IMG/VR virus record: IMGVR_UViG_3300027687_001258
Coordinates: 1 to 44,340 of that record
Reading direction: 5' to 3' (one strand)
Length of the DNA: 44,340 nucleotides
Source: a virus
Shown here in pieces: positions 3,340 to 41,131 of this stretch. The translations under genes were made by a program, and so were the position numbers. The notes beneath the pieces were generated by a model. That model had not been told where the DNA came from, ran no database searches, and worked only from the letters and a program-made list of their open reading frames with translations. The stretch's first letter is position 1. Each line of letters opens with the position of its first letter.

Positions 3340-3345
3340 TAGTAT

Positions 3346-3605: not shown

Positions 3606-3624
3606 CTTAATAAGGAGAAGTAAG

Positions 3625-6555: not shown

Positions 6556-7270
6556 TACATTTACAAAGAAAAGGAACATTTACTCAATGTTAGTAGACCA
6601 AGAAACGTTTGGTATATTAACAGTTTCGGCTAGTCCGTCAGTTATTAATGCATTAGCAGAAGGTATAACAAATACATCTTTGATGATAGGACAATTTCCA
6701 GAAGAACGTATTAAGGTATTGAACAATTATAATAAAGGATCAGGACAAAGTTTTATTTTAACAACATCTGGATCAGATAAAGGATATGCTATACCTGCGG
6801 CAGAGTTAAGTGTGGCAAAAGTAATAAAAGGTCAGAAAGTTATTTTTGATATCCAAGTTATGGAAACTGTACCAGAAGAGTTTACTGAAAAACGAAAAAT
6901 TGCTAACAGACGACAGCATGTGTTAAGTGCAATAGAAACTAAACTAGAACGTTATGCTGGCAGAGTGGTACATAGTTCTGTTGACGATTTGTTTATTCCA
7001 CATATGACTGTAGAAGTTAACAACTGTAAACCAAATGAAGGTTATTATACTGATGCATTAATAGAATATGCAACTTCGTCAGATTTAACAGTTGATCAAG
7101 CATTTCAAGAATGTAGAATGATAACAAGTTCTACAAATATTACAGTTATGCGTTTACATGCGTACTGGAAATACTTTATAAAGTATATAAATTCTTTAGA
7201 TCTTATTGCCCCTGAAAGTATGTCTGAGGCAATAGCATTAGCAGAATTTAAATTACGATCAGGCATGTAA
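6548..7270 (+). CDS. Partner protein, family 1, of AsnB-like cassette 2
   Basis: A 240-residue paralogue of the products at 4886 and 15049: YSMLVDQETFGILTV at the start, VPEEFTEKRK in the middle, and NNCKPNEGYYTDALIEYA with RLHAYWK near the end. An AAAGGGG ribosome site precedes the ATG, which overlaps the upstream synthetase by 8 bases. The stop TAA shares its last A with the ATG of the next synthetase (TAATG), so the two products are probably made in fixed ratio. The C-terminal block is helical and the best conserved part. No known domain is recognised. Confidence 0.75.
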   Translation: MLDTFTKKRNIYSMLVDQETFGILTVSASPSVINALAEGITNTSLMIGQFPEERIKVLNNYNKGSGQSFILTTSGSDKGYAIPAAELSVAKVIKGQKVIFDIQVMETVPEEFTEKRKIANRRQHVLSAIETKLERYAGRVVHSSVDDLFIPHMTVEVNNCKPNEGYYTDALIEYATSSDLTVDQAFQECRMITSSTNITVMRLHAYWKYFIKYINSLDLIAPESMSEAIALAEFKLRSGM

Positions 7271-15049: not shown

Positions 15050-15747
15050 TGTTTACATCAGCTCCATCACAATACGGGTTAATAATTGACAGTAGAAATA
15101 ACGGAGTTCTAATAGGAACTTCAAATATGGACGTTATTACGGCACTTGTTATGCGTAAATCTTTTTATAGATTAGAAATCGATTGGATGAATAATTCTCA
15201 TAAACAGGTTAACGCATTATTTTTTAATACCAATTACGAATTTGATAAAACAGAAAAACTATATAGAATGGTATATAATAAAACTCATGGAAATGAACCA
15301 TCAAAAACTGGTAGACATTACCTTGAACTTATTCCACCTGAGGATGTAACAGATGAATATCTTGCAGACAAACTGGATGCTCATCTAGCTGAAGTAATGT
15401 ATGCTAATGTATGGCAAAACATCATGTCGTCATTAACTTTTACGCCACCTGAAAATGATATGGCTATACGATTCTATCCTGAATTACGAGATGCAATTAA
15501 TGAGTGCGATCCGGCAACAAATAGTTATGTACAAGAAATTGTTGAATATGGATCTTTTAATAATTTAACTCCTGAACAGTCGTACGATGAAATATGTAGA
15601 CAACTGTTGCCAATTAGAAAGCAACGTATTCGTGCGTATGCAATGTGGACAAAGTATGTACCTATAATGATGAATGTAGAATTATTAGAGGATTTTCGTA
15701 AAATATTAATAGACGTTAAAAGCAATGTAAGATTAGGGGCAGTATGA
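15049..15747 (+). CDS. Partner protein, family 1, of AsnB-like cassette 3
   Basis: A 232-residue paralogue of the products at 4886 and 6548: YGLIIDSRNNGVLIGTSN at the start, PEDVTDEYLADKL in the middle, NECDPATNSYVQEIVEYG and RIRAYAMWTK near the end. It overlaps the synthetase gene by 4 bases (ATGA). Sequence identity to the other two is modest by eye but the order and spacing of conserved blocks are the same. Function unknown; partnership with the synthetase is inferred from constant pairing. Confidence 0.74.
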   Translation: MFTSAPSQYGLIIDSRNNGVLIGTSNMDVITALVMRKSFYRLEIDWMNNSHKQVNALFFNTNYEFDKTEKLYRMVYNKTHGNEPSKTGRHYLELIPPEDVTDEYLADKLDAHLAEVMYANVWQNIMSSLTFTPPENDMAIRFYPELRDAINECDPATNSYVQEIVEYGSFNNLTPEQSYDEICRQLLPIRKQRIRAYAMWTKYVPIMMNVELLEDFRKILIDVKSNVRLGAV

Positions 15748-16844
15748 TGGGGGAATTATTACTATCAACCGTTGCTAGTGCAATTCATACTGCAACTGAA
15801 AGAACACAGGATCAAAAAGATTTCTACGAAATTTATAAGGTTATTGCTCCTACTGTTAACTTATGCGATCGCACAGGGCATGTTACGACACCTTATAATT
15901 ATAAGGTAATGCTTCCTATTCCAGAAGAACAAACTAATGTTGGAACATTTTCTGAAATTTCAATAGCTCGAGGAATTGAATTACTTAATCTAAGTAAAAC
16001 AACAAATAAACCATGCCTAATATTATGGAGCGGAGGCATTGATAGTACATCGCTTTTAACAGCAATGATAATAGCATCTGAAGGGGATTACAGCAACCTT
16101 AAAATTTGTATGAATGCTCAATCTATTAGAGAAAATCCTAGATTCTATTATACATATATTAGAGGAAAGATTGAAATTATAGCAAGTGAAACTATGTTTA
16201 GTCATATTAACAAAGACCATATTGTTATTAGTGGTGAGGGGTGTGATCAGTTGTTTGGCACGGACATATATCAAGCAATTGAAAGATGGGATAACGGTCG
16301 AGGAGCTATGTTTCAACCATATAATTTTGAAAATGTTGGTGCATTTTTTATGTATAAAGGAATGTCTGAACGAGCCGCTAAAATTTGGTATGACATTATG
16401 GACGATCAAATTAAAGCAAAACAACCCTGTGAAATTATAGATTTTAAAGATTTCTTTTGGTGGTATAATTTTTGTTATAAATGGCAGAACGTATATTATA
16501 GGCTTTTTAATATGGGTAAATTTATGTCCTTTCCCTTAGATCAAGATTTCTTTGATAATAATTATATACAGTTCTTTATGAATGATGATTTTCAAAGATG
16601 GAGTATTGCAAATCCAGATAAGAAAATTACAAAAGATTGGAGTACATATAAGTTTACGGCAAAAGAATTTATCTTTGATTTTACTAAAGATCAAGAATAT
16701 CTTGATAATAAAGTTAAAATTGCAAGCCTTATAAATGTCTTTAGGACGATTGAACATGTTGGAGCATTAAATTCTAATTATGAATTTCTTCCTCCACATT
16801 TTGATATAACTCCTTACAAACTTCAAACAAATAGCTTCTCCTAA
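15744..16844 (+). CDS. AsnB-like PP-loop synthetase, cassette 3
   Basis: A 366-residue protein. SGGIDS is at residues 96-101. SGEGCDQLFGT is the closest copy in this window of the asparagine synthetase signature GEGxDElFgGY. FFWWYNFCYKWQ, FFMNDDFQRWSI and FTKDQEYLDNKVK are shared with the enzymes at 5509 and 7270. There is no glutaminase domain. It is preceded by its partner and a cupin and followed, 38 bases on, by two more PP-loop genes, so 14153-19140 may be one biosynthetic operon. Confidence 0.84.
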   Translation: MMGELLLSTVASAIHTATERTQDQKDFYEIYKVIAPTVNLCDRTGHVTTPYNYKVMLPIPEEQTNVGTFSEISIARGIELLNLSKTTNKPCLILWSGGIDSTSLLTAMIIASEGDYSNLKICMNAQSIRENPRFYYTYIRGKIEIIASETMFSHINKDHIVISGEGCDQLFGTDIYQAIERWDNGRGAMFQPYNFENVGAFFMYKGMSERAAKIWYDIMDDQIKAKQPCEIIDFKDFFWWYNFCYKWQNVYYRLFNMGKFMSFPLDQDFFDNNYIQFFMNDDFQRWSIANPDKKITKDWSTYKFTAKEFIFDFTKDQEYLDNKVKIASLINVFRTIEHVGALNSNYEFLPPHFDITPYKLQTNSFS

Positions 16845-16882: not shown

Positions 16883-17830
16883 ATGGAATACGGTTTAGAT
16901 AATAAAAAAGAATTTTACGTTGATTATACATCTTGCACTAGACCAGTTGGCAATATACGAGATGAAATGGAAATTGCTTGCACTAATTTAGCAGAAGAAG
17001 CAGATGCAAGAGATACTCATGTAACAATTAGTCTTAGTAGCGGATTAGACAGCCAAGTATTACTACACACTTTTTATTCTTGCGGTTTGCCATATTCTAC
17101 AGCTTTCTGCCATTGGCCTGGATATAACGATAACGAACGCAGTAACATTGACTCGTTGGATACAAAGTATAATAACGAAACACAAATTGTTACAATAAAT
17201 CCAGACGAACATAAAGAAGAAGTTAATAAGTTAGCAGTAAAAACAGGAATACCAGCTGAACATCATTTAATGAAAATGTTCTTAGAGCAACTACCAAGTG
17301 AAGTAGATATATTGCAAGGTATTGAAAGTTTTGATTTTATATTCCGTAATAAGAAAACATACTGTATGGAAAGCTGGACTGCAATAGAAGTAGCAAGTCA
17401 AAGAGCATTGAGGCAAGTTGATAGAACAGGTAAAATATTAGCAATAGACAGACGTGCAAGTTTTAATGAATTTACGTTAGCATTATTAAACGATCCTATA
17501 GTAGAAGGATATTGCAAGTCTATTAGATATATTGTTGGTAACGGATTAGTAGAGAAAAAGTCTGGAGAAGCACCTCCATTAATTTTTTCATGGGAATATT
17601 ATGTTAAACCTTTACTATATGGTTTATACTGGAAAGACGAACTAGAGTTATTTCCAAAAGACGTTAGTGCAAATAATATAGATTGGATTATGAATCCTTC
17701 TGATAATAGATTAAGACATAACTATAGGAACAAATGTGCTTTTATAGACAGAGATGAACTAATAGCACTTCTTACTGACTTCGGTTCAGGTAGGACTCGT
17801 AGATGGCATCAATATAAAGGAAAAGTATAA
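16883..17830 (+). CDS. PP-loop ATPase, AsnB-like, divergent
   Basis: A 315-residue protein. LSSGLDSQ (SSGLDS, residues 52-57) is the PP-loop, with the second G of the usual SGG replaced by S in the first position of the triplet, as in some AsnB relatives. The rest (ESFDFIFRNKKTYCMESW, SFNEFTLALLNDP) is arranged like AsnB C-terminal domains, where a LLNDPIVEG-like segment marks the enzyme core. It lacks the cassette motifs and has no partner gene of family 1 or 2. Its stop overlaps the next ATG (TAATG). Likely ATP-dependent ligase, substrate unknown. Confidence 0.7.
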   Translation: MEYGLDNKKEFYVDYTSCTRPVGNIRDEMEIACTNLAEEADARDTHVTISLSSGLDSQVLLHTFYSCGLPYSTAFCHWPGYNDNERSNIDSLDTKYNNETQIVTINPDEHKEEVNKLAVKTGIPAEHHLMKMFLEQLPSEVDILQGIESFDFIFRNKKTYCMESWTAIEVASQRALRQVDRTGKILAIDRRASFNEFTLALLNDPIVEGYCKSIRYIVGNGLVEKKSGEAPPLIFSWEYYVKPLLYGLYWKDELELFPKDVSANNIDWIMNPSDNRLRHNYRNKCAFIDRDELIALLTDFGSGRTRRWHQYKGKV

Positions 17831-19140
17831 TGGCAACACCATTACTAGATCCAAATGGATCTATACCAGAGGCTAAGATAATTATAAATCCATATATCAA
17901 TAAGAAACTTGGATATTACATTGTAGATGGATTTGAATTTGATTCTAAAATTAGAGCAGGATTGCATTCAGTTAAAGTAAACAAGCCTGTACAATGGATA
18001 TTTAATAATAAGGAATTTAGAGCTCATGACTGGAGTGTTGAACCAACAGAAACATTAGATCAACTGTATGATGCCCGAGCATTTGATTTGAGAACAAAGT
18101 ATGATTATTTAATTTTAAGTTTTAGTGGCGGAAGTGACTCTTGGAACATTTATAAAGCATTTCAAAGACAAGGCTTACATATTGACGAAGTTATTGTTAA
18201 CACAATGACCAAAGCTAGTAAAGGGTTAGTAACTGACTCTAGTGCAAAAGCAGTTAATGCTCCTGAAAGCGAACATGTAAGAAATACAGTCCCTAGGCTT
18301 AAAGAAATACAAAAAGAAATGCCTATGACTAAGATTACTGTTACAGACCAAAGTGATTATTTGTTTGAAAGTTTAGAAGCGGCAGGAGATGCTAGTTGGG
18401 TGTTAGATAAACGTGAGGGATTGAATCCAGCAGGTATTACAAGATTTAACTATTTGCATTTTATGGAAGTTCGTAAGAGATTTGACAAAGATAAAAAGAT
18501 TGGATTAATAGTAGGTATTGAAAAGCCTAGGACATTAGTACATCAAGGCAGATTCTTTGTTAGATTTGCAGATAGAAGCACTAACATGATTACTGTAGCA
18601 GAGCATTTAAAAGATTATCCTAATTCTACTGTAGAGTTCTTTTATTGGTCTCCGGATTGTGTTCCTTTGCTTATTAAGCAAGCACACGTTGTTAAGAAGT
18701 ACTTAGAAGCAAATCCTTCTATGCAAGTACACTTTAATAGCGATAACTCTACAGGTAAAGTATATAGGCTATTACACGAACCGTTACTTAGAAACTTATT
18801 ATACAGTACATGGGATCAACGTTGGTTCCAAGCAGAGAAAGCAGTACTAGATTGGGATAGCGAATTTGATCAATGGTTTAGAGTTGGCTACCAAGATACT
18901 AAAGCATATCAAGTTTGGATGGAAGGACTAAAGTATGTGTCTGACAACTTAAAGCCATTCTTACGTTATGTAGATGATCCTAATAATGATGTATGGAATA
19001 CTAGTATGATGAATACATTTACTGATAGGGGAGATGAGTTAATTGGACAACGTCCAGATGGCCTGATGCCAGTACTTCATAACTACGAAGTTGGTAGAAT
19101 GAAAGTATCTGGCCCAGGTGTCAATAACTTTATGCGTTAA
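17830..19140 (+). CDS. PP-loop ATPase-like protein, separate subfamily
   Basis: A 436-residue protein. ILSFSGGSDSWNIYKAF (SGGSDS, residues 99-104) is a PP-loop of the N-type ATP pyrophosphatases. The about 90 residues before it form a small strand domain (GYYIVDGFEFDSKIRAGLHS). No AsnB signature follows, so this is not close to the cassette enzymes. From memory, similar proteins occur singly in T4-like marine phages. It is coupled to the preceding PP-loop gene by a 1-base overlap and converges with the TctC gene (4-base overlap). Substrate unknown. Confidence 0.68.
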   Translation: MATPLLDPNGSIPEAKIIINPYINKKLGYYIVDGFEFDSKIRAGLHSVKVNKPVQWIFNNKEFRAHDWSVEPTETLDQLYDARAFDLRTKYDYLILSFSGGSDSWNIYKAFQRQGLHIDEVIVNTMTKASKGLVTDSSAKAVNAPESEHVRNTVPRLKEIQKEMPMTKITVTDQSDYLFESLEAAGDASWVLDKREGLNPAGITRFNYLHFMEVRKRFDKDKKIGLIVGIEKPRTLVHQGRFFVRFADRSTNMITVAEHLKDYPNSTVEFFYWSPDCVPLLIKQAHVVKKYLEANPSMQVHFNSDNSTGKVYRLLHEPLLRNLLYSTWDQRWFQAEKAVLDWDSEFDQWFRVGYQDTKAYQVWMEGLKYVSDNLKPFLRYVDDPNNDVWNTSMMNTFTDRGDELIGQRPDGLMPVLHNYEVGRMKVSGPGVNNFMR

Positions 19141-20054
19141 TTCTTCTGCAACGGAATATTATTATCAATTAAAAACTTTTCTAATTTTGTGTTATTGTGA
19201 AATGCTTCTAACTTAGTTTCAATGTCTGCTTTAGCAATAGGAAATAGTCCAATATTTTTAAGCCCTTTAACAAAGTCTTCGTTCTTAAACAACTTATCAA
19301 TATCTGCTCTAATACTTACTAAGTCTTTAGTATTACGAGATGTAATTAATCCGATAGGACTAACAAAAGGAAACTCTTCCTTGTAAACATCTTGCCATGT
19401 AGGAATATCTAATCCTAAGTCTTGGCTTGACATAATACTTGTAATATTTTTACCTAAATGATTTTTAACTGTTGGATAGTTTGCAAACATGCAATCAATA
19501 TTACCTGCTAGTAAATCACTCAAAGCAGTAGTTCCTCCCTTAGCATAAGGAATAACTTTACTATCAATTTTTAACTTTTTAATTAGTACTTCTGTAGCCA
19601 AATGTTCACTACTTCCGTAACCCGCGGCACCAAATAAAATTCTTCCCTTATCAAAGTTTTCTAAGTCTGCAACTGTTGACATTTTTCTATCATCATTACA
19701 AACTAATACATTAGGCATTGTAGCAACAACTCCTAGCAAAAGGAAATCCTTAATTGCATCGTATTCTAAATCTTTAAATCTAATTTTATTTGTAACATAA
19801 ATTTGAGCCATTGTTGCAGTAATAACACTCTTGTTAGTTTTCAACATATGTTTGATTGCAATTTTACCAGCCGCTCCAGGCCTGTTCACAACATTATATT
19901 CATTGTCTGACTTAACAATGTTTCTCTCAATTAATCTAGTAGTCTGATCGCTAGGACCACCTGGTCCATGATGTACGGTTAATTCAATGTCCGTAGCATA
20001 TGCATTTGTTGTAAATGCTAAAATAGCCGTTACGGCTAACAACTTCTTAATCAT
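19137..20054 (-). CDS. tctC: TctC/Bug-family tricarboxylate-type binding protein, exported
   Basis: A 305-residue protein with a signal peptide (MIKKLLAVTAILAFTTNAYA); start chosen at 20054 for that reason and for an AGAAGAGA site. Family marks are the opening HHGPGGPSDQTTRLIE, VNRPGAAGKIA, FGAAGYGSSEHLATEVL and PYAKGGTTALSDLLAGNIDCMF, the last being the most typical TctC block. These proteins bind carboxylates in the periplasm for the TctAB transporter. No TctA or TctB gene is in the window, so it would use host permeases or act alone. It converges with the PP-loop gene. Confidence 0.88.
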   Translation of the reverse strand: MIKKLLAVTAILAFTTNAYATDIELTVHHGPGGPSDQTTRLIERNIVKSDNEYNVVNRPGAAGKIAIKHMLKTNKSVITATMAQIYVTNKIRFKDLEYDAIKDFLLLGVVATMPNVLVCNDDRKMSTVADLENFDKGRILFGAAGYGSSEHLATEVLIKKLKIDSKVIPYAKGGTTALSDLLAGNIDCMFANYPTVKNHLGKNITSIMSSQDLGLDIPTWQDVYKEEFPFVSPIGLITSRNTKDLVSIRADIDKLFKNEDFVKGLKNIGLFPIAKADIETKLEAFHNNTKLEKFLIDNNIPLQKN

Positions 20055-20079
20055 ATGTAAATCTCTTCTCACTTTTAGG

Positions 20080-20108
20080 TTGACTTCTGAGTCAATATGT
20101 AGTAGTAT
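20080..20108 (+). promoter_or_regulatory. Promoter with palindrome over the -35 box
   Basis: TTGACT (20080-20085), 17-base spacer, TAGTAT (20103-20108). The -35 box is half of a palindrome TTGACT-TCTG-AGTCAA (20080-20095), which could be an operator. It drives the membrane-protein gene at 20152. Confidence 0.5.
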
Positions 20109-20151
20109 ATATGTAATTTGTAACCTGAGTGTTTTCCAAGAAAGTAGAAAC

Positions 20152-20460
20152 ATGACATATGATAAAAAACTAGACGAGAAGATTGCTGACTTAAACTCTA
20201 CGAGAGTTTACAAAAAGACAACACCTCTATATACTACTGATTGGTATATTAAGTGGATAGCATCATTTGTAATACTACTAGCAGTTATGTGTCGTAGTGT
20301 TGAAGAAGTTCCAAAGATATACGATCTTGTGTTATCCTTTTGTGGTTGCTCTGGTTGGTGCATGGTTGGATATATTTGGCATGATAGAGCCTTGCTTGTT
20401 TTAAATTCAGTACTGCTATTTGTACTAGGATCAGGGATCTTAACATACATATTTAAATAG
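20152..20460 (+). CDS. Small membrane protein
   Basis: A 102-residue protein with a charged N-terminus (MTYDKKLDEKIADLN) and three hydrophobic segments, two short ones near the middle and one at the end (ALLVLNSVLLFVLGSGILTYIF). The ATG at 20152 lies downstream of the promoter at 20080; the reading frame continues upstream but only as antisense of the TctC signal peptide. From memory it resembles membrane proteins of marine T4-like phages. Function unknown. Confidence 0.65.
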   Translation: MTYDKKLDEKIADLNSTRVYKKTTPLYTTDWYIKWIASFVILLAVMCRSVEEVPKIYDLVLSFCGCSGWCMVGYIWHDRALLVLNSVLLFVLGSGILTYIFK

Positions 20461-24085: not shown

Positions 24086-24886
24086 GTGACTTGGGGTAAC
24101 CAAATAAAAGAGAAAATCTCTTTCTTCCATATGAACGCATGGAATAGACGTCCAAATGCAAATATATTTTATAGTCCAGGTGTTGACAGATGTTTTGCAG
24201 TTGATACGTTTGATCCATATACAGCATTTGATGTTGCTAAAATATTAAGCAGTAAAATGCCTGCTATTGCAGTACTAACATTACATTACGAAGATCGAAC
24301 AGATGTTAATAATGGTAATGTTACAAACTTTACTGTTTCAGATAAGCAAATTATAGGTGGTGCCGCAGGTTTGCTATTCAGTAGACAAACACCAGTATAT
24401 AGAAAGATGCGAACTTCTGTACTACAAGAATGTGATAGTATGCCTTTAGATTACAAGCCAGGATCTACAGGTTACGATTCGTTTATGAAAATATCAAAAT
24501 ATACTAAATTTGTAATCCGTTGCTGGCATGTGACTAAACTATTTGACATGGTACATAACTTCTTACCAATGGAAGAATTTGCAAATGATTATCTTGCTGG
24601 AGAAGTGCCAGAGGATATGTGTTTGCCAGCAGACAGTAGTAACACAACTTCTTCTGCATTTGGTCCTAAGAATGAGATTCGTAGAATACTTTATAATGCA
24701 GACACAGTCGAGGAAGCAATGGAAAACATTGCAGATATGTGGAGAGCAAATAATACACCTCATTCCTTTCCAATGCGTAAAATGTTCTATGTATTATTAG
24801 ATCATGCAGACTATCCAGAGCCAGAAGATTTAGGTGCTACACAATCAGATACAGACTTAACACATTACTCAGGATACTTACTATGA
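24086..24886 (+). CDS. Partner protein, family 2, of AsnB-like cassette 4
   Basis: A 266-residue protein starting at GTG. It shares with the product at 36441 the blocks YSPGVDRCFAVDTFDPYTAFDVAKILSS... near the N-terminus, KMP(A/V)IAVLTL, RRILYNADTVEEAMENIADMW near the end and a final DHADYPEP. Family 2 may be a distant version of family 1 since both open with a strand-turn-strand before a helix. Its stop overlaps the synthetase ATG (ATGA). No known domain; a role with the synthetase is inferred from pairing. Confidence 0.73.
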   Translation: MTWGNQIKEKISFFHMNAWNRRPNANIFYSPGVDRCFAVDTFDPYTAFDVAKILSSKMPAIAVLTLHYEDRTDVNNGNVTNFTVSDKQIIGGAAGLLFSRQTPVYRKMRTSVLQECDSMPLDYKPGSTGYDSFMKISKYTKFVIRCWHVTKLFDMVHNFLPMEEFANDYLAGEVPEDMCLPADSSNTTSSAFGPKNEIRRILYNADTVEEAMENIADMWRANNTPHSFPMRKMFYVLLDHADYPEPEDLGATQSDTDLTHYSGYLL

Positions 24887-26184
24887 ACCTTGACACAAAA
24901 ATGTATTATACATCAGTTAACTGGGACGGACAAGAAGGAAATAAGTTTTGGGAAGAAACTTATAATGAAGTAGGAGCAGGAGGCAAGTTTGTAATAGATT
25001 TTGCTAGGAGAATTAATCCTAATAGATTTTCTTCTAGGGATAGTTCAACTTGGACACTTCCTTGGCCAGATGAAGTTTTACCTAAGTACAAGTTAGTTGA
25101 TTACGATCCTAACTACACAGGATCTTTTGCAGAAGCATCTGATAGCAAAGCAATGGAGTATGCCAGGCGTATTGATGAGAACGATGAGAAGTTTGCAATT
25201 ATGTATTCTGGAGGCATTGATTCAACAATCATTACAACTGCTCTAATTAAAAACTTAACTGAAGAACAACTTAAAAATGTTATTATTTGTACTAGTGTTC
25301 AAGCAGTAGTTGAAAATCCAAATTATTGGCGTAGATTTATATACGGCAAGTTTAAAATTATTGATTCTATGATTAACAAATACGATATGCTGTTAGAGCA
25401 AGGATATACTCCTGTTACAGCAGATGATGGAGATTGTATTCATGGAACAGTACTAGGCTTAAACTTCTATCATGCATGGGAGCAAAAGATTGGTGCAAAA
25501 CTTAGCGAGGACCAACGCAGGCACGTTAGAAACAACTTACATAAATTAAGCGACAAGGATACTCATTTTAGTGTATTTGAAGATGCATTAGTTGAGTATT
25601 TTCAGTATAGCGATACACCTTGGTGGCCTGTTCCTAGGAATCCAAATCCAGATCCTAAGTTTGGTCGTAAACTATACGACAAATATGCCTTAAATGCAAA
25701 TACTGCATCTTGTCCTGTTATTAGTTTACAAGATTTCTTTTGGTGGTTAATTTTTAATGTTAAGATGATTAACTGTGGTGTTAGAGGTGCAATGTATTAT
25801 AACGATCGTTATGATATGAATACTGCAATAAACAAAATTGAGAATTGGTATCTATGGCCAGCATACCAACAATGGTCGATGAACAATAATAATAACGGAC
25901 AAAAAATTGGCTATAGTGCTGGTACATATAAAAAAGCCGCTAGGGATTATATCTTTGATTTAGATCAAAATATTTGGTATAGAGACTTTAAACTAAAATT
26001 AGAAAGCATGGGACAAAATAGTGTTAGACAGAAAGTTGATACATCTGTATATCCTAAACCCATGCATAGGTTTGGTATTACAACTGACTATAAAGTAGTC
26101 AACGTATTAGATGCAGATGTACAGGATTATATTAAGCATCATTTATCAAACTTTAAGATAACATGGAGTGAGGAGACAACATGA
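24883..26184 (+). CDS. AsnB-like PP-loop synthetase, cassette 4
   Basis: A 433-residue protein. SGGIDS is at residues 109-114. TADDGDCIHGT lies where AsnB has GEGxDElFgGY. QDFFWWLIFNVKM and QQWSMNNN match the motifs of the other cassette enzymes. An N-terminal extension of about 80 residues (VNWDGQEG, FVIDFARRI, TWTLPWP) is shared only with the enzyme at 37166, which makes these two a subfamily. There is no glutaminase domain. Its end overlaps the GNAT gene (ATGA), giving a three-gene operon. Confidence 0.83.
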   Translation: MNLDTKMYYTSVNWDGQEGNKFWEETYNEVGAGGKFVIDFARRINPNRFSSRDSSTWTLPWPDEVLPKYKLVDYDPNYTGSFAEASDSKAMEYARRIDENDEKFAIMYSGGIDSTIITTALIKNLTEEQLKNVIICTSVQAVVENPNYWRRFIYGKFKIIDSMINKYDMLLEQGYTPVTADDGDCIHGTVLGLNFYHAWEQKIGAKLSEDQRRHVRNNLHKLSDKDTHFSVFEDALVEYFQYSDTPWWPVPRNPNPDPKFGRKLYDKYALNANTASCPVISLQDFFWWLIFNVKMINCGVRGAMYYNDRYDMNTAINKIENWYLWPAYQQWSMNNNNNGQKIGYSAGTYKKAARDYIFDLDQNIWYRDFKLKLESMGQNSVRQKVDTSVYPKPMHRFGITTDYKVVNVLDADVQDYIKHHLSNFKITWSEETT

Positions 26185-31693: not shown

Positions 31694-32653
31694 ATGAAGC
31701 AAGTAATTAAACGTTTAGCATTTACCGTAGTAGCAATAGGAGCTCTAAGTGCATGTCAAACAACTAATTCACTAGCAGTTAATAACGAAACATCTGCTAT
31801 ACAGTATGATGGTAAAGCAGTTACTAATAATAATGTGTCTATCATGCCTGGATATGCTCATTACATGAAGCTAAATCCTTTGAAATCTCAAATTCCAAGT
31901 TATGACGGTAAAGGTTTACTTGCCGCAAGTTGGAATCCTTCCGATGATGTTGCTAACAATCCAACTATTGTTATAATGCATGGTGGACATGGTATTGGTA
32001 GCGGTATGTGGATTAAAGCAAGAGATCTAAAGCAAAGGATTAATGCCAACGTATTACTCCTTGACAGTTTTATGTCACGTGATATGCCTAATAACTGGGA
32101 TAGAAGTGTAGAAGCTGATGCAATCGTCCGTACATTTGATGTTATTGCAGTTGGTAAATGGTTAAAGACTCAAGGGTCTGATCCTAGTAAAACTTATATG
32201 ATGGGTGGTTCACAAGGTGGATGGACAACTCTTAAAGCAATGTCTGCAGGAGCAACTCAACTTGCTGAAGTAAAGCCTCTTTATGCAGGTGGTATTGCAT
32301 ACTACCCTGTTTGTGACAACTACAACAAGAATGGTAACCTAAGAGCAGGACAACGATTTGTTTCGTTAGCAAAGAATGGTTTTTGGGGACCTGTGTTACT
32401 TCTAACTGGTAATGAGGACTATGCTACTCGTATTGAAGATTGCCAGCAGTCTGTAGTTAAGCATGCTACTAAGCATGTTAGGTTTGAAAGAGGAACACAT
32501 GGTTGGGAAATCCGTTGGAGAGAAAACGGAGAAATGAACAAGGATGGTTCATGCAAGTACTCAGGTAACAAGAACTTTAAGATGTGTTACGATGCTAAAC
32601 ACACTACTGAAATGTATATTGAAATGACTAATTTTATTAATGGAGTAAAGTAA
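31694..32653 (+). CDS. Lipoprotein alpha/beta hydrolase, dienelactone-hydrolase-like
   Basis: A 319-residue protein. It has a lipoprotein signal with lipobox ALSAC (Cys21). MHGGHG (95-100) forms the oxyanion loop, GGSQGG (Ser173) is the nucleophile elbow, and a His follows in ERGTHGWEIR. It should hydrolyse esters or similar bonds at the periplasmic face. The ATG at 31694 follows GGAGAAG. It is coupled to the serine hydrolase behind it by TAATG, so the two exported enzymes act together, perhaps on cell-surface or scavenged compounds. Confidence 0.8.
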   Translation: MKQVIKRLAFTVVAIGALSACQTTNSLAVNNETSAIQYDGKAVTNNNVSIMPGYAHYMKLNPLKSQIPSYDGKGLLAASWNPSDDVANNPTIVIMHGGHGIGSGMWIKARDLKQRINANVLLLDSFMSRDMPNNWDRSVEADAIVRTFDVIAVGKWLKTQGSDPSKTYMMGGSQGGWTTLKAMSAGATQLAEVKPLYAGGIAYYPVCDNYNKNGNLRAGQRFVSLAKNGFWGPVLLLTGNEDYATRIEDCQQSVVKHATKHVRFERGTHGWEIRWRENGEMNKDGSCKYSGNKNFKMCYDAKHTTEMYIEMTNFINGVK

Positions 32654-33786
32654 TGAACAGTAGATTTATATTTGGTACATTAACTATCGTAACAACTATT
32701 TGGGTTGTATCAGGAGTTGTACAAAGTGCATTTGCAAAGTCAGCCCACGTTTCAATTGAACGTACTACAGGAGGCAATGCAGTAGAGTTTCCTAATGTAC
32801 ATTTACAAAGTGGCATGGGACGAGATATGCTTCAGCCTTTTAATGAGGAACTGCAAACAACACATGATCTAAAGTCAGCAGACAGAGTTCAAAGAATGAT
32901 GGAACGAAACAATTCAGCTCTTACTGGATTGTTGATTAACAAAGGACGTATTGTATACGAAGGATACAGGGCACCTGCTCGTGCTAATAGTAAGATGCAT
33001 AGTATGTCAATGTCTAAGAGCTTAACTGCTCTTGTAGTTGGAAACCTGTTATGTGATGGAAAAATTAGAAGTCTTGACGATAAAGCAATTAAGTATGCTC
33101 CACAGTTAGAAGGAACTCCATATGGAGATACTTCAATTCGTAATCTATTAAAGATGGCTAGTGGTATAAAGAAACTTGGCGAACACGGACAGCCTAAACA
33201 TAAGACTTATACTAGAATGAGGAACCAACGAGATACAGGTTTGTTTATGCTCAAAGGACACACAAGGCAATACGAAGAAGGAACCAGTCATCTTTATAAT
33301 TCAGGAGATACGTTAGCACTAGCCCAAGTAATGGAATCAATGGGCGGACTAGTTCGTAACTTTAACTTTTACATTTGGTCTAGGATTGGTGCCGAGACAG
33401 AAGGTTCATGGATGGTAGATAACCGAGGAGAGCCAATTGCCTTTGCAGGTTTTAATGCAAGCCTGAGGGATTGGGGTAGACTTGGAATGTATACAATAGA
33501 CATGGTAAAAGGTCGAGGTGGTTCATGTATGCAAGAATTTACTACAGATATGAACTCTAAGCAAATTAGGAACGAGAAGCGTCCTGGAGAAGCAGGTCGT
33601 GCATTTACACACTATGGTTATCAAACTTGGATTATGCAAAACGGAAATGCATGGTGGGTTGGCTATGGTGGACAACGAGTTGGATTAAACTTTGAACTTG
33701 AAAAAGTTATGGTTATCCACAGCCACATTGAAAACTATATGAGAGAAGCACATCAAGTTTTTAATTATTTTGCAGATTGGGATTAA
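32653..33786 (+). CDS. Beta-lactamase-fold serine hydrolase, exported
   Basis: A 377-residue protein with an N-terminal signal or anchor (about residues 1-28, ending SAFA). The catalytic SxxK is SMSK (Ser119, Lys122), the Tyr motif lies in LYNSGDT, and the closing GYGGQR resembles the KTG-type strand. These enzymes (class C beta-lactamase and esterase/amidase relatives) act on esters or amides in the periplasm; true beta-lactam resistance is not implied. It is coupled at both ends by 1-base overlaps. Confidence 0.8.
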   Translation: MNSRFIFGTLTIVTTIWVVSGVVQSAFAKSAHVSIERTTGGNAVEFPNVHLQSGMGRDMLQPFNEELQTTHDLKSADRVQRMMERNNSALTGLLINKGRIVYEGYRAPARANSKMHSMSMSKSLTALVVGNLLCDGKIRSLDDKAIKYAPQLEGTPYGDTSIRNLLKMASGIKKLGEHGQPKHKTYTRMRNQRDTGLFMLKGHTRQYEEGTSHLYNSGDTLALAQVMESMGGLVRNFNFYIWSRIGAETEGSWMVDNRGEPIAFAGFNASLRDWGRLGMYTIDMVKGRGGSCMQEFTTDMNSKQIRNEKRPGEAGRAFTHYGYQTWIMQNGNAWWVGYGGQRVGLNFELEKVMVIHSHIENYMREAHQVFNYFADWD

Positions 33787-34106: not shown

Positions 34107-34712
34107 ATGTTCTCATTTAAAGACGTAGATAAAAGTATGCTACTAAAGTTGGTAGCATTACATGTTTTGGTTATTGTAGTTAGTAATGCCTTAGTTAGTA
34201 TTCCGGTAGAAATTCTTGGAATTAAACTTACTTGGGCGGCATTCACTTTTCCACTAGTAGTATTAGCAACTGATTTGACTGTACGACTATTAGGAAAGCA
34301 TATTGCTCGAAGTACAATTACCGCGGCATACCCGTTAGCAATTATTGGATCTATTCTAGTAGTACTAGCAGAAGGTGCTCCTACTAGTGTAGCACTTCGT
34401 ATTGGTTTTGCCAGTGCAACAGCCTATGCAGTTGGAACAATGCTTGACGTATATGTATTCCAACATATTAGAGAAAAGTTAGTAGACAACTGGTGGCTCG
34501 CTCCAGCAGTATCAACTATCGCCGCTAACATTATTGACACTTATGCATTCTTTGCAGTAGCCTTTCATAACTCCGCAGACGAGTATATGTCAGCAAACTG
34601 GATGGAGGTAGCAGGATCTCAAGTCATTATTAAGATCGGTGTTGGCCTCATAGTATTCTTACCAGCATATGGTGTACTATTAAAGCATTTAAGTAAAAAA
34701 GTAAAAACGTAA
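34107..34712 (+). CDS. yhhQ: Queuosine-precursor transporter, YhhQ/VUT family
   Basis: A 201-residue protein with about six membrane helices. The pattern SNALVSIPVEILG, TWAAFTFPLVVLATDLTVRLLGKHIAR, FASATAYAVGTMLDVYVFQHIREK and NIIDTYAFFAVAF, with the charged LATDL and LDVYVF motifs, is typical of the QPTR family. These import preQ0, preQ1 or queuine. A phage may use it to supply 7-deazaguanine for tRNA or to modify its own DNA against host nucleases. No TGT or QueC-type gene is recognised in the window. AAAGGAGGAA precedes the ATG. Confidence 0.82.
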   Translation: MFSFKDVDKSMLLKLVALHVLVIVVSNALVSIPVEILGIKLTWAAFTFPLVVLATDLTVRLLGKHIARSTITAAYPLAIIGSILVVLAEGAPTSVALRIGFASATAYAVGTMLDVYVFQHIREKLVDNWWLAPAVSTIAANIIDTYAFFAVAFHNSADEYMSANWMEVAGSQVIIKIGVGLIVFLPAYGVLLKHLSKKVKT

Positions 34713-35117: not shown

Positions 35118-35804
35118 ATGAGTCTAAATACAGATGGATTATTTTTAGCAGTAGCAAATCCTCAATTATCAAAATATGATGGTGTAAAACTTCCTCCATT
35201 AGTTATTCCGGACGGAAGTGGTCCTTGGGCTCTTAGATATATTTGGGTTAAACATAAAACTGATAACGATAACTTCGTAAAGAATTATTTCAATAAAGGC
35301 AACAATGCAGACGGTGCTGGTATTAATTTGCGAAAGCAAACTGACCACATGAAAGAGAAAGCATGGAACCCTCACAACAATATTTTTGATACTAGTCGAG
35401 ATAACGGTAACTTAGTATGGCGTGTTAAAGTACATAATGCCTTAGCAGATACAATAGACTATGTTGAAATATGGCGTAGTAAGCAAATTATTAAAGATAC
35501 TTTTGGAGTTAAAAAAGGAGATACTACTATTAAAAATAGTAAAGTTCCTGTAACTAATTCTGAAAGCACATCAGATCTTGCTAGGTCTGCAGAAGAAATT
35601 ATTACATTAAGAAAAGGTTTAGAAGAAGCAGGGTTTGAACCCAGAGCTTGGTCTACTTTTCCTAATGTTCATCCTATTGTCGCAATGAAGTGGTACTTGT
35701 ACTTTCTTGAAAGACGAAACGGAAATAAGCAATGTGTTATAAACACACCTTACAACAAAGAACTAAATGACTGGGAACAGTTTAAACGAAAGGAAAAATA
35801 TTAA
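35118..35804 (+). CDS. Phage protein of unknown function
   Basis: A 228-residue soluble protein, Gly- and Asn-rich in the middle ([18 protein letters not shown]), with [20 protein letters not shown] and a C-terminal helical part ending in a basic run. A GGAGA site precedes the ATG, and its stop overlaps the ClpP start by 1 base. From memory similar proteins occur in marine T4-like phages, where no role is assigned. It might be a ClpP substrate or a virion component; this is speculation. Confidence 0.6.
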
Positions 35805-36430
35805 TGGCACTCGTACCTATGGTAGTAGAGAAAACCTCTGAAGGTGAAAGGGCATACGATATCTATAGTCGTTTGCTTAAAGAAAGAATCATTATGGTTG
35901 AAGGAGTAGTAAACGATAATATGGCTAATTTAATTGTAGCCCAGTTACTATACCTAGAAGCAGAAAATGATACAGATATTACAATGTTTATTAATAGTCC
36001 TGGAGGTTCAGTTACAGCCGGATTAGCAATTTATGATACAATGCAATTTGTTGGAGCTGATGTGGCTACCTTTGCAATAGGACAAGCATGTTCGATGGGA
36101 TCTGTATTAGCAATGGCAGGCTGTAAAGGAAAGCGATATGTTTTACCTAGCTGTCGTACAATGATTCATAGAGTAAGTTCTGGCACTAGAGGAACAGAAG
36201 GTAGTGTTCATGTGCAAGAGTTACAATTTGAAGATGCTATTCGTAGTATGGAAGAATCAAAGAAACTCAACGAACGTTTAACTAACCTTTATGTTACACA
36301 TAACACAAAAGGTAAAACTTATGAACAGATGTTTGACACAATGAAGTTTGATACGTTCTTAGATGCACAAGCAACAATAGATTTTGGTCTTGCAGATAAA
36401 GTTATTAGTAACAGAAGTGATATTACATAG
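35804..36430 (+). CDS. clpP: ClpP-type serine protease subunit
   Basis: A 208-residue protein with intact catalytic Ser97 (GQACSMGS), His122 (TMIHRV) and a candidate Asp183 (KFDTFLD). [14 protein letters not shown] is the substrate groove. Length and pattern fit the standard ClpP. It would form rings that work with host ClpX or ClpA. Phage ClpP may remove host proteins or process virion proteins, and pairs naturally with the tmRNA tag of this genome, which ends in LAA. It is coupled to the unknown gene upstream and followed by cassette 5. Confidence 0.9.
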
Positions 36431-36440: not shown

Positions 36441-37166
36441 ATGGACTTAAACGAGTTTAAGACGCTGATTGCTGAACAATCAACTATTGGAAGAGATTAT
36501 TTTAAAGGAGATGCATATTTTAGCCCAGGTGTAAAGTATCTAATTTATTCTCCAGGAATTGATAGGTTTTTACTTATTGACACAATGGATTTATGGACTA
36601 CATTAGAAACTGCTAAAATGTTATCTTCAAAAATTCCTGTTTCGATAATTGCACTTACAAATTGTTCTGCACCTATTACCATGAAAAATTGTTTACTATG
36701 GACTATCTCAGAAAAGACAGGTTATAAACAAACTGAAAATCAGGCACCTCTTATAGGATCAGTTTCCGGTGAGGACCAAGTTGAAGAACTTGGCTTAGCA
36801 TTAGATTATAAAGATGATATAAGTGCCCCGTATATAATTAAGTTACAAAATTATGCACTATTCTGCCAAAAAATATTGTATGCAATAAAAATAGCAGATG
36901 CAGAAACTAATTCAGATGATGCTGAATATTACAAAGAATTGTTTGAAGTTGATATCAGAAAACTACTTCAAGTTAGAGCAGATCATACTAGAGTACCCCA
37001 AGGTGTATTATTGTGGACCAAGCGAATCTTGTACATGTCTAATGATATTGATGAGGCAATGGAAAAACTTCAAAGACTTTGGAATCCAAATGTAGCGAGA
37101 GATACTGATATACGAAGTGCATTTTTTAAATATGCTGAGATACCTTATAATGAAGGTCTCAAATAA
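36441..37166 (+). CDS. Partner protein, family 2, of AsnB-like cassette 5
   Basis: A 241-residue paralogue of the product at 24086: IYSPGIDRFLLIDTMDLWTTLETAKMLSS, KIPVSIIALT and TKRILYMSNDIDEAMEKLQRLW, ending AEIPYNEG. The ATG at 36441 has only a weak AGGAAA site; an upstream in-frame start inside clpP is unlikely. The stop overlaps the synthetase start (TAATG). Function unknown; constant pairing implies a subunit or substrate. Confidence 0.73.
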   Translation: MDLNEFKTLIAEQSTIGRDYFKGDAYFSPGVKYLIYSPGIDRFLLIDTMDLWTTLETAKMLSSKIPVSIIALTNCSAPITMKNCLLWTISEKTGYKQTENQAPLIGSVSGEDQVEELGLALDYKDDISAPYIIKLQNYALFCQKILYAIKIADAETNSDDAEYYKELFEVDIRKLLQVRADHTRVPQGVLLWTKRILYMSNDIDEAMEKLQRLWNPNVARDTDIRSAFFKYAEIPYNEGLK

Positions 37167-38587
37167 TGGATATTAATTCTTTAACATTTGATAAATTTAA
37201 TATATCAAAGTATCATACAGATGCAAATAAAAATATTAATTTTATTAGTAAAGAAAATAGAGATCCTATACCTAGATCTAAAAAGAAATTATCTGATGGT
37301 CTGCAATCTTTTGATACTCCAGTGTTTCATCATAGTCTTTCCTGGAATGACACAACTTCTAAATTTTATGGTGCTTTGTATAACGACTTGCCAACTGCGT
37401 CTAAGTATTACATAGACTTTGCTAAAATATACACACATTCTAGATTTTCTCCTAGGCATGGTCATTGGACTCAACCTTATCCAACACCTCAAATGCCAGA
37501 ATTGGCTATGCCTTCTTATGCACCTAATTTTAATAAGACCTGGACAGAAATTACTGATAATAGGGCTCAATGGGTTAAAGAATTGATAATACGTGAACCT
37601 AATCGTAAAATTGCAATATATTACTCGGGAGGCATTGATAGCTTAGTTGTATTGATTGCTTTGCTTAAAGTACTTAATACTCAGGAGCTTCGTTCTAAGT
37701 TGACAATTTGTTGCAGTATGGAAAGTGTTATTGAATATCCTAATTTCTTTAGAGATGAAATTTATGGAAAGTTTAACATTATAGATTTAAAGATGGGAGT
37801 AGTCCGGTTTAATGATTTAATTGCTAGAGGATTTACAATAATCACTGCCGACCTTGGTGATGCTATGTTTGGTACAGAGGTGTCTACCCAGTTTTATTAT
37901 ACATTTAGAAATCATGCTGAAGCTCTTGGATTTCAAGGACGTAAACTAGTAGGAGATTTATTAGAAGATATTGGTAAAGCAGACTCACATTATTCTGTTT
38001 ATAAAGATGTGCTAATTGCATATTTAGGTGCTGGCGGCGTTTATTCTAAAGACGCAAATATAACAGAAGGCTTTGGAGAATGGTATTATAATAAATTAGA
38101 TACGTTAGCAAAATCATCAGATTATACAGTTTTTAGTTTGCATGATTTCTTTTGGCAGATTATTTTTAATGTTAAATGGATGCATTGTTCTTGCAGATGT
38201 TTTATGTACTTTGGAGACAGTACTAACAATAGACATTTATTTCAAGGGGAAAAACTTTACATAAATTGGTACCAAGATGATGATTATCAACGTTGGAGTA
38301 TGGTTAATAATAACACAGGACAGAAGATTAAAGGTGTTACAGCCGCCACGTATAAATGGGCGGCTAGAGAATACATATATGATTATACAAAAGATGACTG
38401 GGCATTATATTTTAAACTTAAGATTGCTTCTTTTCAGAAAATTGCTCCTGTTATGACTTATCCTCATTCCTTAGATGTAATGGAGAGATTTGCAGTTAAC
38501 ACAGATTACCAAATTGTTCGTTTAACTGATCCTGGGGTAGAAGATTACATTAAGCATCATTTGTTTAATAACAATGCCCTGGTGTAA
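37166..38587 (+). CDS. AsnB-like PP-loop synthetase, cassette 5
   Basis: A 473-residue protein, the longest of the five. SGGIDS is at residues 154-159. TADLGDAMFGT takes the place of the AsnB GEGxDElFgGY signature. LHDFFWQIIFNVKWMHC, DDDYQRWSMVNN and YTKDDWALYFKLK are conserved. The N-terminal about 100 residues (LSWNDTT, YYIDFAKIYTHSRFSPR) are shared with the enzyme at 24883. There is no glutaminase domain. It overlaps its downstream neighbour by 14 bases. Confidence 0.83.
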   Translation: MDINSLTFDKFNISKYHTDANKNINFISKENRDPIPRSKKKLSDGLQSFDTPVFHHSLSWNDTTSKFYGALYNDLPTASKYYIDFAKIYTHSRFSPRHGHWTQPYPTPQMPELAMPSYAPNFNKTWTEITDNRAQWVKELIIREPNRKIAIYYSGGIDSLVVLIALLKVLNTQELRSKLTICCSMESVIEYPNFFRDEIYGKFNIIDLKMGVVRFNDLIARGFTIITADLGDAMFGTEVSTQFYYTFRNHAEALGFQGRKLVGDLLEDIGKADSHYSVYKDVLIAYLGAGGVYSKDANITEGFGEWYYNKLDTLAKSSDYTVFSLHDFFWQIIFNVKWMHCSCRCFMYFGDSTNNRHLFQGEKLYINWYQDDDYQRWSMVNNNTGQKIKGVTAATYKWAAREYIYDYTKDDWALYFKLKIASFQKIAPVMTYPHSLDVMERFAVNTDYQIVRLTDPGVEDYIKHHLFNNNALV

Positions 38588-39262: not shown

Positions 39263-39291
39263 TTGACATTACGGACAACTGGTGCTATACT
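39263..39291 (+). promoter_or_regulatory. Sigma70-type promoter, GGAC-spacer family
   Basis: TTGACA (39263-39268), 17-base spacer TTACGGACAACTGGTGC, TATACT (39286-39291). The TG of the extended -10 is present. Confidence 0.8.
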
Positions 39292-39312: not shown

Positions 39313-39618
39313 TTGACAGGTGAGATAATTAACATGCCGTTACATATTATGCGGCCTAAACTAGACTTTTCAAAGTATCCTAATCTTACTTTAGAAACTC
39401 AAGTTGGATTATCTCGTTACATATTAGATCATAAGGAGCCAGGTGGCTATCTTAGATCTGTCTTAGAAAACAACTTAATGACTGCTATACAGTCTGCTGA
39501 TTCACAAAACTTAAAGCAACTAAAAAGTTTATGTAATTGGATTTTTAATAATGCTCCTGGAGCGTCCTGGGGCGATCAATATACAGTAGACAGTTGGATT
39601 TATGGTGAAGAAATATGA
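39313..39618 (+). CDS. Small protein of unknown function, TTG start
   Basis: A 101-residue protein starting at TTG, with AAGGAG 6 bases upstream. It has a strand segment then helices (TLETQVGLSRYILDHKEPGGYLRSVLENNL, NLKQLKSLCNWIF) and ends WGDQYTVDSWIYGEEI. Its stop overlaps the HD-hydrolase start (ATGA), so the two are coupled. Function not recognised. Confidence 0.6.
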   Translation: MTGEIINMPLHIMRPKLDFSKYPNLTLETQVGLSRYILDHKEPGGYLRSVLENNLMTAIQSADSQNLKQLKSLCNWIFNNAPGASWGDQYTVDSWIYGEEI

Positions 39619-40115
39619 ATATGATTGAAAAAGCAAAAACATTTGCAACTAAGGCACATGAAGGACAAGTCCGAAAGTATACCGGAGTACCTTACATTGT
39701 TCATCCTATTGAAGTTTCTGAAATTGTAGCAGAGTACAACGGATCACAAGAAATGATTGCCGCGGCACTTTTACATGATGTAGTAGAAGACACAGATGTT
39801 ACTATTGAGGAAATCCGTAGCGAGTTTGGTAACTCTGTTGCTAGTTTAGTAGATGATCTAACAGATGTAAGCAAGTTGGAAGATGGTAACCGAGCAGTAC
39901 GAAAAGCAATGGATCGTGAGCATACTGCAAAAGCAAGTGCCGCCGCTATGGTTGTTAAGGCCGCTGATCTAATTAGCAATGGTAGAGATATTAAAGTAAA
40001 TGATCCGTCCTTTGCTAAAATTTATCTCAAAGAAATGAATTTGTTGTTAGACAAGATGTTTAAAATTAAAGAAATGGAAATTTATAAAGTAGCAAAAGGA
40101 GTAGTAAAAATATGA
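39615..40115 (+). CDS. HD-domain hydrolase of the MESH1/SpoT (p)ppGpp hydrolase type
   Basis: A 166-residue single-domain protein. Ligands and active-site residues of the family are all visible: RKYTGVPYIVHP (His30), LLHDVVEDTD (His54, Asp55, Glu58, Asp59) and VVKAADLISN (Asp118). There is no synthetase or ACT domain, so it is a small alarmone hydrolase or a NADPH phosphatase of the MESH1 kind. In a phage it could erase (p)ppGpp to keep host growth pathways open or to counter toxic alarmone-type defences. It is coupled to genes on both sides by ATGA. Confidence 0.84.
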   Translation: MNMIEKAKTFATKAHEGQVRKYTGVPYIVHPIEVSEIVAEYNGSQEMIAAALLHDVVEDTDVTIEEIRSEFGNSVASLVDDLTDVSKLEDGNRAVRKAMDREHTAKASAAAMVVKAADLISNGRDIKVNDPSFAKIYLKEMNLLLDKMFKIKEMEIYKVAKGVVKI

Positions 40116-40288: not shown

Positions 40289-40313
40289 CATTTCGGATAA
40301 CTGGTGCTATACT
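40285..40313 (+). promoter_or_regulatory. Sigma70-type promoter, GGAC-spacer family
   Basis: TTGACA (40285-40290), 17-base spacer TTTCGGATAACTGGTGC, TATACT (40308-40313). It differs from the one at 39263 in only a few bases. Confidence 0.8.
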
Positions 40314-40339
40314 ATAGAAACAATAAGGGATTAGAAAAT

Positions 40340-41131
40340 ATGGAATTACAAGCAGGAAAATTAGTTGAACTTAAGGTAAAGAATGTTATGTACCCTTATA
40401 GGGATCGCTATGCGAGGCATATGTTTATTCCTGAGTTTAATTACTACAAAGGACAGGTTGTATACGAAAAATGGTATAAGCCTGATCAAGTTGGTCTCAC
40501 AACAGGTGAAGATTGGTTTAAGGTTCGCAGGTTAGACCTGCATCGTATTGTAGAGATAAACGGAGTAGAGATAGAGCCTATCCCAGAAGTTATTCCGTCT
40601 ACTGCTAAAGTTTTTACTGTTTTAGGTTCTAAAGGCGAAGAGTACGAAGTTACTTTTGATGGCCCTAATTCAAAATGTACTTGTAAAGGTTTTCAGTTTA
40701 GAGGAACTTGCAAGCACATTGCACAAGAATTCAGCACCGTTCCTGACGTTGCTAAACCCAATTTGACTACAAGAGTAGTCGAGTCCGAGCAGGCGGAACC
40801 TGTTATTGAAATTGAGGAAGAAAATATGTCTGAGAAACTTTTTACTGTAACTGGTTTTAGCACTAAAGATGGTAAAATCAAAGCTCGCTTTGCAACTGAT
40901 ATGACTCGTATTAAGACTCTTATCAAAACTGGACATACAGATATTCAACTGTATGACTTGCCTAAGCCTGCAACAAAACTTGAGGCTCTTCAGTATTTGC
41001 ATGATAAAGGCGTCCCTGGTGATGCTGGTATTGCGATTGCGAAGGAATATGCAAAACGTTCTAAACGAGCGGTTGCTGATCTTGTTAAGGAAGGTCCTGC
41101 TACTTCGCTAGAGTCAGAAGCAGTAGCATAG
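40340..41131 (+). CDS. SWIM zinc-finger protein
   Basis: A 263-residue protein. CTCKGFQFRGTCKHI (about residues 113-127) is the CxC...CxH zinc motif of SWIM domains, which bind DNA or protein. The N-terminal part is strand-rich (GKLVELKVKNVMYPY), the C-terminal part is a small helical domain (TKLEALQYLHDKG, AIAKEYAKRSKRA). The ATG at 40340 lies 8 bases after AAGGGATT; the upstream in-frame start is rejected. It may tune recombination or host gene expression. Confidence 0.72.
   Translation: MELQAGKLVELKVKNVMYPYRDRYARHMFIPEFNYYKGQVVYEKWYKPDQVGLTTGEDWFKVRRLDLHRIVEINGVEIEPIPEVIPSTAKVFTVLGSKGEEYEVTFDGPNSKCTCKGFQFRGTCKHIAQEFSTVPDVAKPNLTTRVVESEQAEPVIEIEEENMSEKLFTVTGFSTKDGKIKARFATDMTRIKTLIKTGHTDIQLYDLPKPATKLEALQYLHDKGVPGDAGIAIAKEYAKRSKRAVADLVKEGPATSLESEAVA

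What the first reader, a model, noticed from the sequence alone, without database searches (positions are those of the whole stretch)
39615..40115. Phage-encoded small (p)ppGpp hydrolase candidate
All metal and active-site positions of the MESH1/SpoT hydrolase domain are present in a stand-alone 166-residue protein, within an early-type operon. It could block the stringent response or neutralise alarmone-based defence toxins.
Basis: partly seen in the sequence, partly recalled or inferred. Interest (0 to 1): 0.55.

Follow-up and report, generated by a model that had tools for sequence, protein, structure and literature searches.

The report
Phage MESH1-like small alarmone hydrolase
A phage genome fragment carries a small enzyme of a family already known from many phages that strips pyrophosphate from stress-signal nucleotides and from toxin-damaged tRNA; it probably helps the phage keep the host cell productive, but it is an ordinary member of that family.

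Summary
Window 39615-40115 (+) encodes a stand-alone 166-aa HD hydrolase with every metal and active-site position of the RelA/SpoT hydrolase domain. An AlphaFold model (mean pLDDT 96.4) overlays human MESH1 over 162 residues (Z 24.0, 1.7 A). The gene is under purifying selection against an 87%-identical copy in a 244-kb viral contig (dN 0.08, dS 1.11). It sits in a tight three-gene unit with ATGA overlaps behind a strong sigma-70-like promoter, so 'early-type' is plausible but not shown. The best-characterised relative, PaSpo of Salmonella phage SSU5 (48% identical), is published to neutralise toxSAS toxins and remove the pyrophosphate they put on tRNA CCA ends. A jumbo-phage survey already proposed such enzymes as counter-defence. 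No alarmone synthetase gene lies in the window or in the 244-kb relative, so a cognate toxin-antitoxin pair is unlikely. Best reading: a PaSpo-like hydrolase removing 3'-pyrophosphate from (p)ppGpp/(p)ppApp and/or tRNA during infection; substrate preference and role untested. One relative (L010) carries the domain inside a >2200-aa LPD38 polyvalent protein, suggesting delivery with phage DNA there.

The parts
39615..40115 (+). 166-aa small alarmone hydrolase (HD_4 domain, PaSpo/MESH1-like)
   Evidence: dN 0.082 / dS 1.110 against L002
39263..39291 (+). Promoter-like TTGACA-17-TATACT with TG before the second hexamer; probable start of the 101aa-hydrolase-58aa unit
   Evidence: (0 mismatches here and at 40285; 4 matches in the window against 0.28 expected)
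39313..39618 (+). 101-aa protein of unknown function directly upstream, ATGA overlap with the hydrolase start; AAGGAG-type ribosome site upstream
   Evidence: no Pfam or PHROG match; 85% identical neighbour in L002
40112..40288 (+). 58-aa protein of unknown function directly downstream, ATGA overlap with the hydrolase stop
   Evidence: only weak matches; 91% identical in L002
40285..40313 (+). Second copy of the same promoter-like block, before the SWIM-domain gene; marks the likely start of the next unit
40304..41131 (+). SWIM zinc-finger protein, next unit downstream (context only)
   Evidence: PF04434, 24.0 bits, cut-off 19.6

Best explanation
This is a phage-encoded small alarmone hydrolase of the PaSpo-like phage clade. 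By analogy with its relatives it is probably a Mn2+-dependent enzyme that removes the 3'-pyrophosphate (or a 3'/2'-phosphate) from nucleotides: (p)ppGpp, (p)ppApp, and the pyrophosphorylated 3'-CCA end of tRNA made by toxSAS defence toxins. Made from its own strong host-type promoter together with two small unknown proteins, it most likely keeps translation and nucleotide pools running during infection, either by undoing toxSAS-type defence or by lowering the stringent response. Shown here: catalytic residues, predicted fold, purifying selection, clade, operon anatomy. Inferred: activity, substrate, timing, role. My estimates: active 3'-pyrophosphohydrolase about 0.9; main benefit is counter-defence against toxSAS products about 0.45; main benefit is blunting (p)ppGpp about 0.35.
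For: Profile matches. PDB sequence matches. Catalytic residues conserved. Model pLDDT 96.4; MESH1 Z 24.0, 1.7 A, 162 residues aligned, above the (p)ppApp hydrolase 7smg (Z 18.2) and ribosome-bound RelA (Z 13.5-13.9). Tree: all 45 phage rows plus 3 bacterial rows on one side of a branch supported 97/92, with PaSpo of SSU5 inside. [quoted passage not shown] Purifying selection. Operon and promoter. One relative, L010, has the domain inside an LPD38 polyvalent protein, a phage-type class held to act at invasion.
Against: No biochemical test. No defence or anti-defence gene was recognised around it: PADLOC finds nothing in 9 of 9 proteins scanned. Neighbours other than in L002 are not conserved, so context does not choose a role. 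Small alarmone hydrolases are promiscuous: XccSAH also takes NADPH and MESH1 takes CoA, so a metabolic role is open. The host is unknown, and so is whether it carries toxSAS.
Confidence: 0.65

Rival explanations
1. The enzyme's main job is to lower host (p)ppGpp, and so relieve the stringent response, rather than to undo a defence toxin.
For: Catalytic residues of (p)ppGpp hydrolases are all present. A MazG-family gene is also present in the 244-kb relative, a family discussed as touching the same nucleotides.
Against: The best-studied close relative was studied as a toxSAS neutraliser. The residues examined here cannot separate (p)ppGpp from (p)ppApp or tRNA.
Confidence: 0.35
2. It is mainly a cofactor phosphatase (NADPH to NADH, or CoA to dephospho-CoA) that remodels host metabolism.
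For: The model is closest to MESH1. MESH1 and XccSAH dephosphorylate NADPH, and MESH1 dephosphorylates CoA. Fly Mesh1 shares the R93/R96/K97-type basic residues in the alignment.
Against: XccSAH works about 1000-fold better on alarmones than on NADPH by the printed kcat/Km values. Sequence places the protein with phage PaSpo; metazoan rows were not in the tree.
Confidence: 0.12
3. It is the antitoxin of a toxSAS toxin-antitoxin module carried by the phage itself.
For: Small alarmone hydrolases such as ATfaRel serve as antitoxins (passage).
Against: RelA_SpoT synthetase domain (PF04607) found in 0 of 2 records searched, the 44-kb window and the 244-kb relative; the control search rang in 11 of 14 genomes. 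The two adjoining small genes match no toxin family. Both records may be incomplete.
Confidence: 0.05
4. It is a degenerate host-derived remnant without function.
For: None beyond the lack of experimental data.
Against: dN 0.082 against dS 1.110; all catalytic residues intact; high-confidence complete fold.
Confidence: 0.02

Closest known systems
PaSpo of Salmonella phage SSU5 (taken here as SSU5_099 in JQ965645, the one match in that record)
   Same: Stand-alone phage hydrolase, 48% identical over 157 columns, same catalytic residues and G-N-R-x-x-R stretch, same side of the tree. [quoted passage not shown]
   Different: 213 aa with a C-terminal extension; lacks K97 and D100 of the window's G-N-R-x-x-R-K-x-x-D stretch; different gene neighbours.
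MESH1 (HDDC3) of metazoa
   Same: Whole-length fold match, Z 24.0, 1.7 A over 162 residues, 32% identity.
   Different: Cellular enzyme, studied also as an NADPH/CoA phosphatase; not placed in my tree.
HD-alarmone phosphodiesterases of jumbo phages (Viruses 2021, PMC7824862)
   Same: Same domain class in phages, predicted there as a counter to alarmone-based signalling (passages).
   Different: A prediction without experiment; that the window belongs to a jumbo phage is inferred only from the 244-kb relative.
Small alarmone hydrolase PaAdele_032 of Pseudomonas phage Adele (PMC12846349)
   Same: Phage-encoded hydrolase proposed to act on (p)ppGpp/(p)ppApp (passages).
   Different: Also untested; its sequence was not compared here.
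Hydrolase domain of long RSH enzymes (RelSeq, SpoT, Rel)
   Same: Same active site; RelSeq Z 17.5.
   Different: Window protein has no synthetase or regulatory domains; long RSHs form their own group in the tree, 100/99.

Membership tests
Small alarmone hydrolase (SAH) | Stand-alone HD hydrolase domain without synthetase, TGS or ACT domains | tested here: met
   166-aa ORF with only HD_4/HD matches
Small alarmone hydrolase (SAH) | Metal ligands and catalytic residues of the RSH hydrolase domain (R, H, HD, ED, D, N) | tested here: met
   Alignment to RelSeq; conservation
Small alarmone hydrolase (SAH) | MESH1/SAH fold | tested here: met
   Model pLDDT 96.4; MESH1 Z 24.0, RelH Z 22.6, P. aeruginosa SAH Z 21.7
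Small alarmone hydrolase (SAH) | Mn2+-dependent release of 3'-pyrophosphate | not testable with these tools
   Needs an assay
PaSpo subgroup | Groups with PaSpo of SSU5 apart from long RSHs and the other small bacterial hydrolases sampled | tested here: met
   Window and SSU5 among 48 rows on one side of a 97/92 branch
PaSpo subgroup | Groups with PaSpo rather than pbcSpo, Mesh1-L, Mesh1, rickSpo or divSpo reference members | tested here: inconclusive
   Named reference members of the other subgroups were not in the tree
toxSAS toxin-antitoxin module with SAH antitoxin | A toxSAS synthetase gene next to the hydrolase gene | tested here: not met
   PF04607 in 0 of 2 records; neighbours without toxin match. 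The records may be incomplete
Phage counter-defence protein | Rescues phage growth or cells from a defence toxin | not testable with these tools
   Precedent only in SSU5 PaSpo co-expression

The most novel reading that the evidence does not exclude
The physiological substrate is not a free alarmone but pyrophosphorylated tRNA: the enzyme is a tRNA 3'-end repair tool that lets the phage survive tRNA-targeting toxSAS immunity in its (probably alphaproteobacterial) host. Relatives that carry the same domain inside LPD38 polyvalent proteins (L010) would deliver the repair enzyme with the DNA, before any phage gene is expressed.
Probability: 0.3. Interest if true: 0.55.

Novelty: new member of a known kind. 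Interest (0 to 1): 0.27.

Why it matters
In the passages I read, its role in infection is predicted, or shown only by co-expression with toxins. If such enzymes undo toxSAS damage during infection, they would be a common counter-defence class. This particular gene adds one more member, with a clean three-gene unit and a close relative in a 244-kb contig.

Tried and rejected
Rejected: toxin-antitoxin module (no synthetase domain). Rejected: chance HD motif. Rejected: degenerate copy. Tried without gain: PADLOC scan of 9 proteins; gene-neighbour conservation across 113 viral/phage loci, where apart from L002 only scattered ClpP, SWIM and other matches appear; near-identity search of the window in phage records, which found only tRNA matches. 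The basic residues R93/R96/K97, near-invariant in viral rows (104 of 105 each), looked like a phage signature, but fly Mesh1 has equivalents in the alignment and SSU5 PaSpo lacks K97, so I do not use them as a substrate marker. Many other HD proteins appear at Z 8-12; they are far weaker than MESH1 and were not pursued.

Full report
What is there. Window 39615-40115 (+) is an intact 166-codon ORF. It scores 83.1 bits against Pfam HD_4 (E 2.3e-23), 140.8 bits against PHROG 990 'metal-dependent phosphohydrolase', and 111 bits against the hydrolase part of the spoT_relA model (far below that model's whole-protein cut-off, as expected for a single domain). PDB sequence matches include Lmo0812, RelSeq, Bacillus Rel and MESH1.

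Active site. The RelSeq alignment places R20, H30, H54, D55, E58, D59, D118 and N122 on RelSeq R44, H53, H77, D78, E81, D82, D144 and N148 (functions of these residues recalled). Seven of the eight are invariant in 35 of 35 aligned phage and viral proteins, and R20 is kept in 34 of 35. The same holds over 105 viral loci (98 contigs) and 80 bacterial loci, with R20 in 104 of 105 and 80 of 80. The scans used some of these letters as search patterns, so these counts lean upward.

Structure. An AlphaFold2 model from the window protein and 22 relatives (alignment A1) has mean pLDDT 96.4 and pTM 0.91. Foldseek ranks fly and human MESH1 first. VIA-align 2 gives human MESH1 Z 24.0, rmsd 1.7 A, 162 residues; RelH 22.6; P. 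aeruginosa SAH 21.7; SpoT 19.8; the (p)ppApp hydrolase 7smg 18.2; RelSeq 17.5; ribosome-bound RelA 13.5-13.9. A shared fold does not fix the substrate.

Selection and kinship. Against its 87%-identical counterpart in a 244-kb viral contig (L002) the gene shows dN 0.082 and dS 1.110 by NG86 over 165 codons. In a 77-row tree all 45 phage rows, with three bacterial rows (Sphingobium, Serratia, Xanthobacteraceae; prophage status not examined), lie on one side of a 97/92 branch; the 15 long RSHs are one group (100/99). PaSpo of phage SSU5 is inside the phage side. The bootstrap had not fully settled, named members of the other SAH subgroups were not included, and five rows have long end branches, so the subgroup label PaSpo is provisional.

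How common. 482 of 50,697 phage records match at E <= 1e-3, 133 of them covering at least 80% of the query; annotators already call several of those listed (p)ppGpp hydrolase/synthetase, SpoT-like or phosphohydrolase.

Neighbourhood. The gene overlaps the 101-aa gene before it and the 58-aa gene after it by ATGA, suggesting coupled translation. A near-consensus extended -10 promoter, TTGACA-17-TATACT, lies at 39263-39291, 21 bases before the 101-aa start (TTG at 39313), with an AAGGAG site between. The same block recurs at 40285 and 43135 and, weaker, at 38915, all on the + strand and all between or at the edges of genes. The longer block pattern matched 4 times in the window (one of them a 3-mismatch site at 6592 on the other strand) against 0.28 expected by shuffles; a simpler pattern gave 4 against 0.13 from a Markov resampling. 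The general promoter scan as a whole found no excess, 42 against 36.8 expected; only the strong block stands out. L002 keeps the three-gene unit with a related promoter in front of it and lacks the 88-aa gene at 38977. Beyond L002 the neighbours are not kept: of 113 loci compared, 9 had a ClpP match, 7 a SWIM match, 3 a match to the 101-aa protein and 1 to the 58-aa protein, L002 included in each count. The gene behaves like a movable accessory.

The virus. The window is a whole IMG/VR record of 44,340 bases classed linear, likely a fragment. The 244-kb contig suggests a large phage. An alphaproteobacterial-type tmRNA in the window hints at such a host. Neither record has a RelA_SpoT synthetase domain; the 244-kb relative has a MazG-family gene.

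What it most likely does. The nearest tested relative is PaSpo of Salmonella phage SSU5: 76 of 157 aligned positions identical. [quoted passage not shown] PMC9712102 co-expressed it to purify CapRel and says it neutralises other toxSAS toxins; PMC7644958 reports that SSU5 and PVP-SE1 SAHs and human MESH1 alleviate FaRel lethality. SAHs are promiscuous: XccSAH takes pGpp, ppGpp, pppGpp, pppApp and, about a thousand-fold less well, NADPH; MESH1 takes CoA. I therefore commit to an active 3'-pyrophosphohydrolase, with undoing toxSAS-type products the likeliest benefit and lowering (p)ppGpp second. A jumbo-phage survey already predicted this class as counter-nucleotide defence, and a recent phage paper offers a similar hypothesis. 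So the finding is sound but ordinary.

A side result of more interest. In L010 the same domain (59% identical) sits inside an ORF of over 2200 codons, open at the contig's start, with LPD38 (80.2 bits, cut-off 27) near its C-end. FSRA-containing motifs recur five times (residues 48, 791, 969, 1150, 1309), two of them just before and after the hydrolase domain. Its C-terminal part matches proteins of small tailed phages, one annotated as a putative virion structural protein. [quoted passage not shown] in those passages I did not see the hydrolase domain named, and a term search of that paper for 'HD domain' gave none. This rests on one contig of 98.

Papers. Only passages found by term search were read, plus one section of PMC9765508; for others only search listings.

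Noticed in passing
L010:35-6697 (contig IMGVR_UViG_3300027608_001849): The same hydrolase domain is embedded in a >2200-aa LPD38 polyvalent protein, bounded on both sides by FSRA-containing motifs that recur five times; suggests delivery of an alarmone or tRNA hydrolase with phage DNA. The repeats could be processing sites (inference).
   Followed up: partly
window 5509-6555, 7270-8325, 15744-16844, 16883-17830, 17830-19140, 24883-26184, 37166-38587: Seven large ORFs carry an SGGIDS-like motif (SSGLDS and SGGSDS in two), resembling the PP-loop of N-type ATP pyrophosphatases (motif recalled), several paired with a 210-260-aa ORF just upstream. The three scanned (37166; 5509 and 16883) match no Pfam family. 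An unusual multi-copy family for one phage fragment.
   Followed up: no
window 3307-3658: Phage-borne permuted, alphaproteobacterial-type tmRNA (Rfam RF01849 123.6 bits, RF04321 122 bits), predicted tag ANDNFASEDFALAA.
   Followed up: no
window 387-1553, 1748-2686, 19137-20153 (-): Two DctP TRAP-type and one TctC-type solute-binding receptor genes on a virus record, possibly host-derived transport genes.
   Followed up: no
window 2754-2832: A freshwater-2 cis-regulatory RNA motif (Rfam RF02980, 67.3 bits, threshold 49.9) directly before the ORF at 2830.
   Followed up: no
window 38915, 39263, 40285, 43135 (+): A repeated promoter block ending in GGTGCTATACT (GTGTTATACT at 38915), each copy between or at the edge of genes; the 38915/39263 pair flanks an 88-aa gene absent from the L002 locus, as if a promoter-gene cassette had been inserted.
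   Followed up: partly
window 32653-33786, 34107-34712, 35804-36430: Beta-lactamase-family, Vut_1-type transporter and ClpP protease genes upstream of the unit; ClpP also lies near the hydrolase in several other viral loci.
   Followed up: no
L002:7588-8124: The 244-kb relative has an extra peroxiredoxin-like gene (label recalled from its sequence) between the SWIM and HNH genes where the window has none.
   Followed up: no
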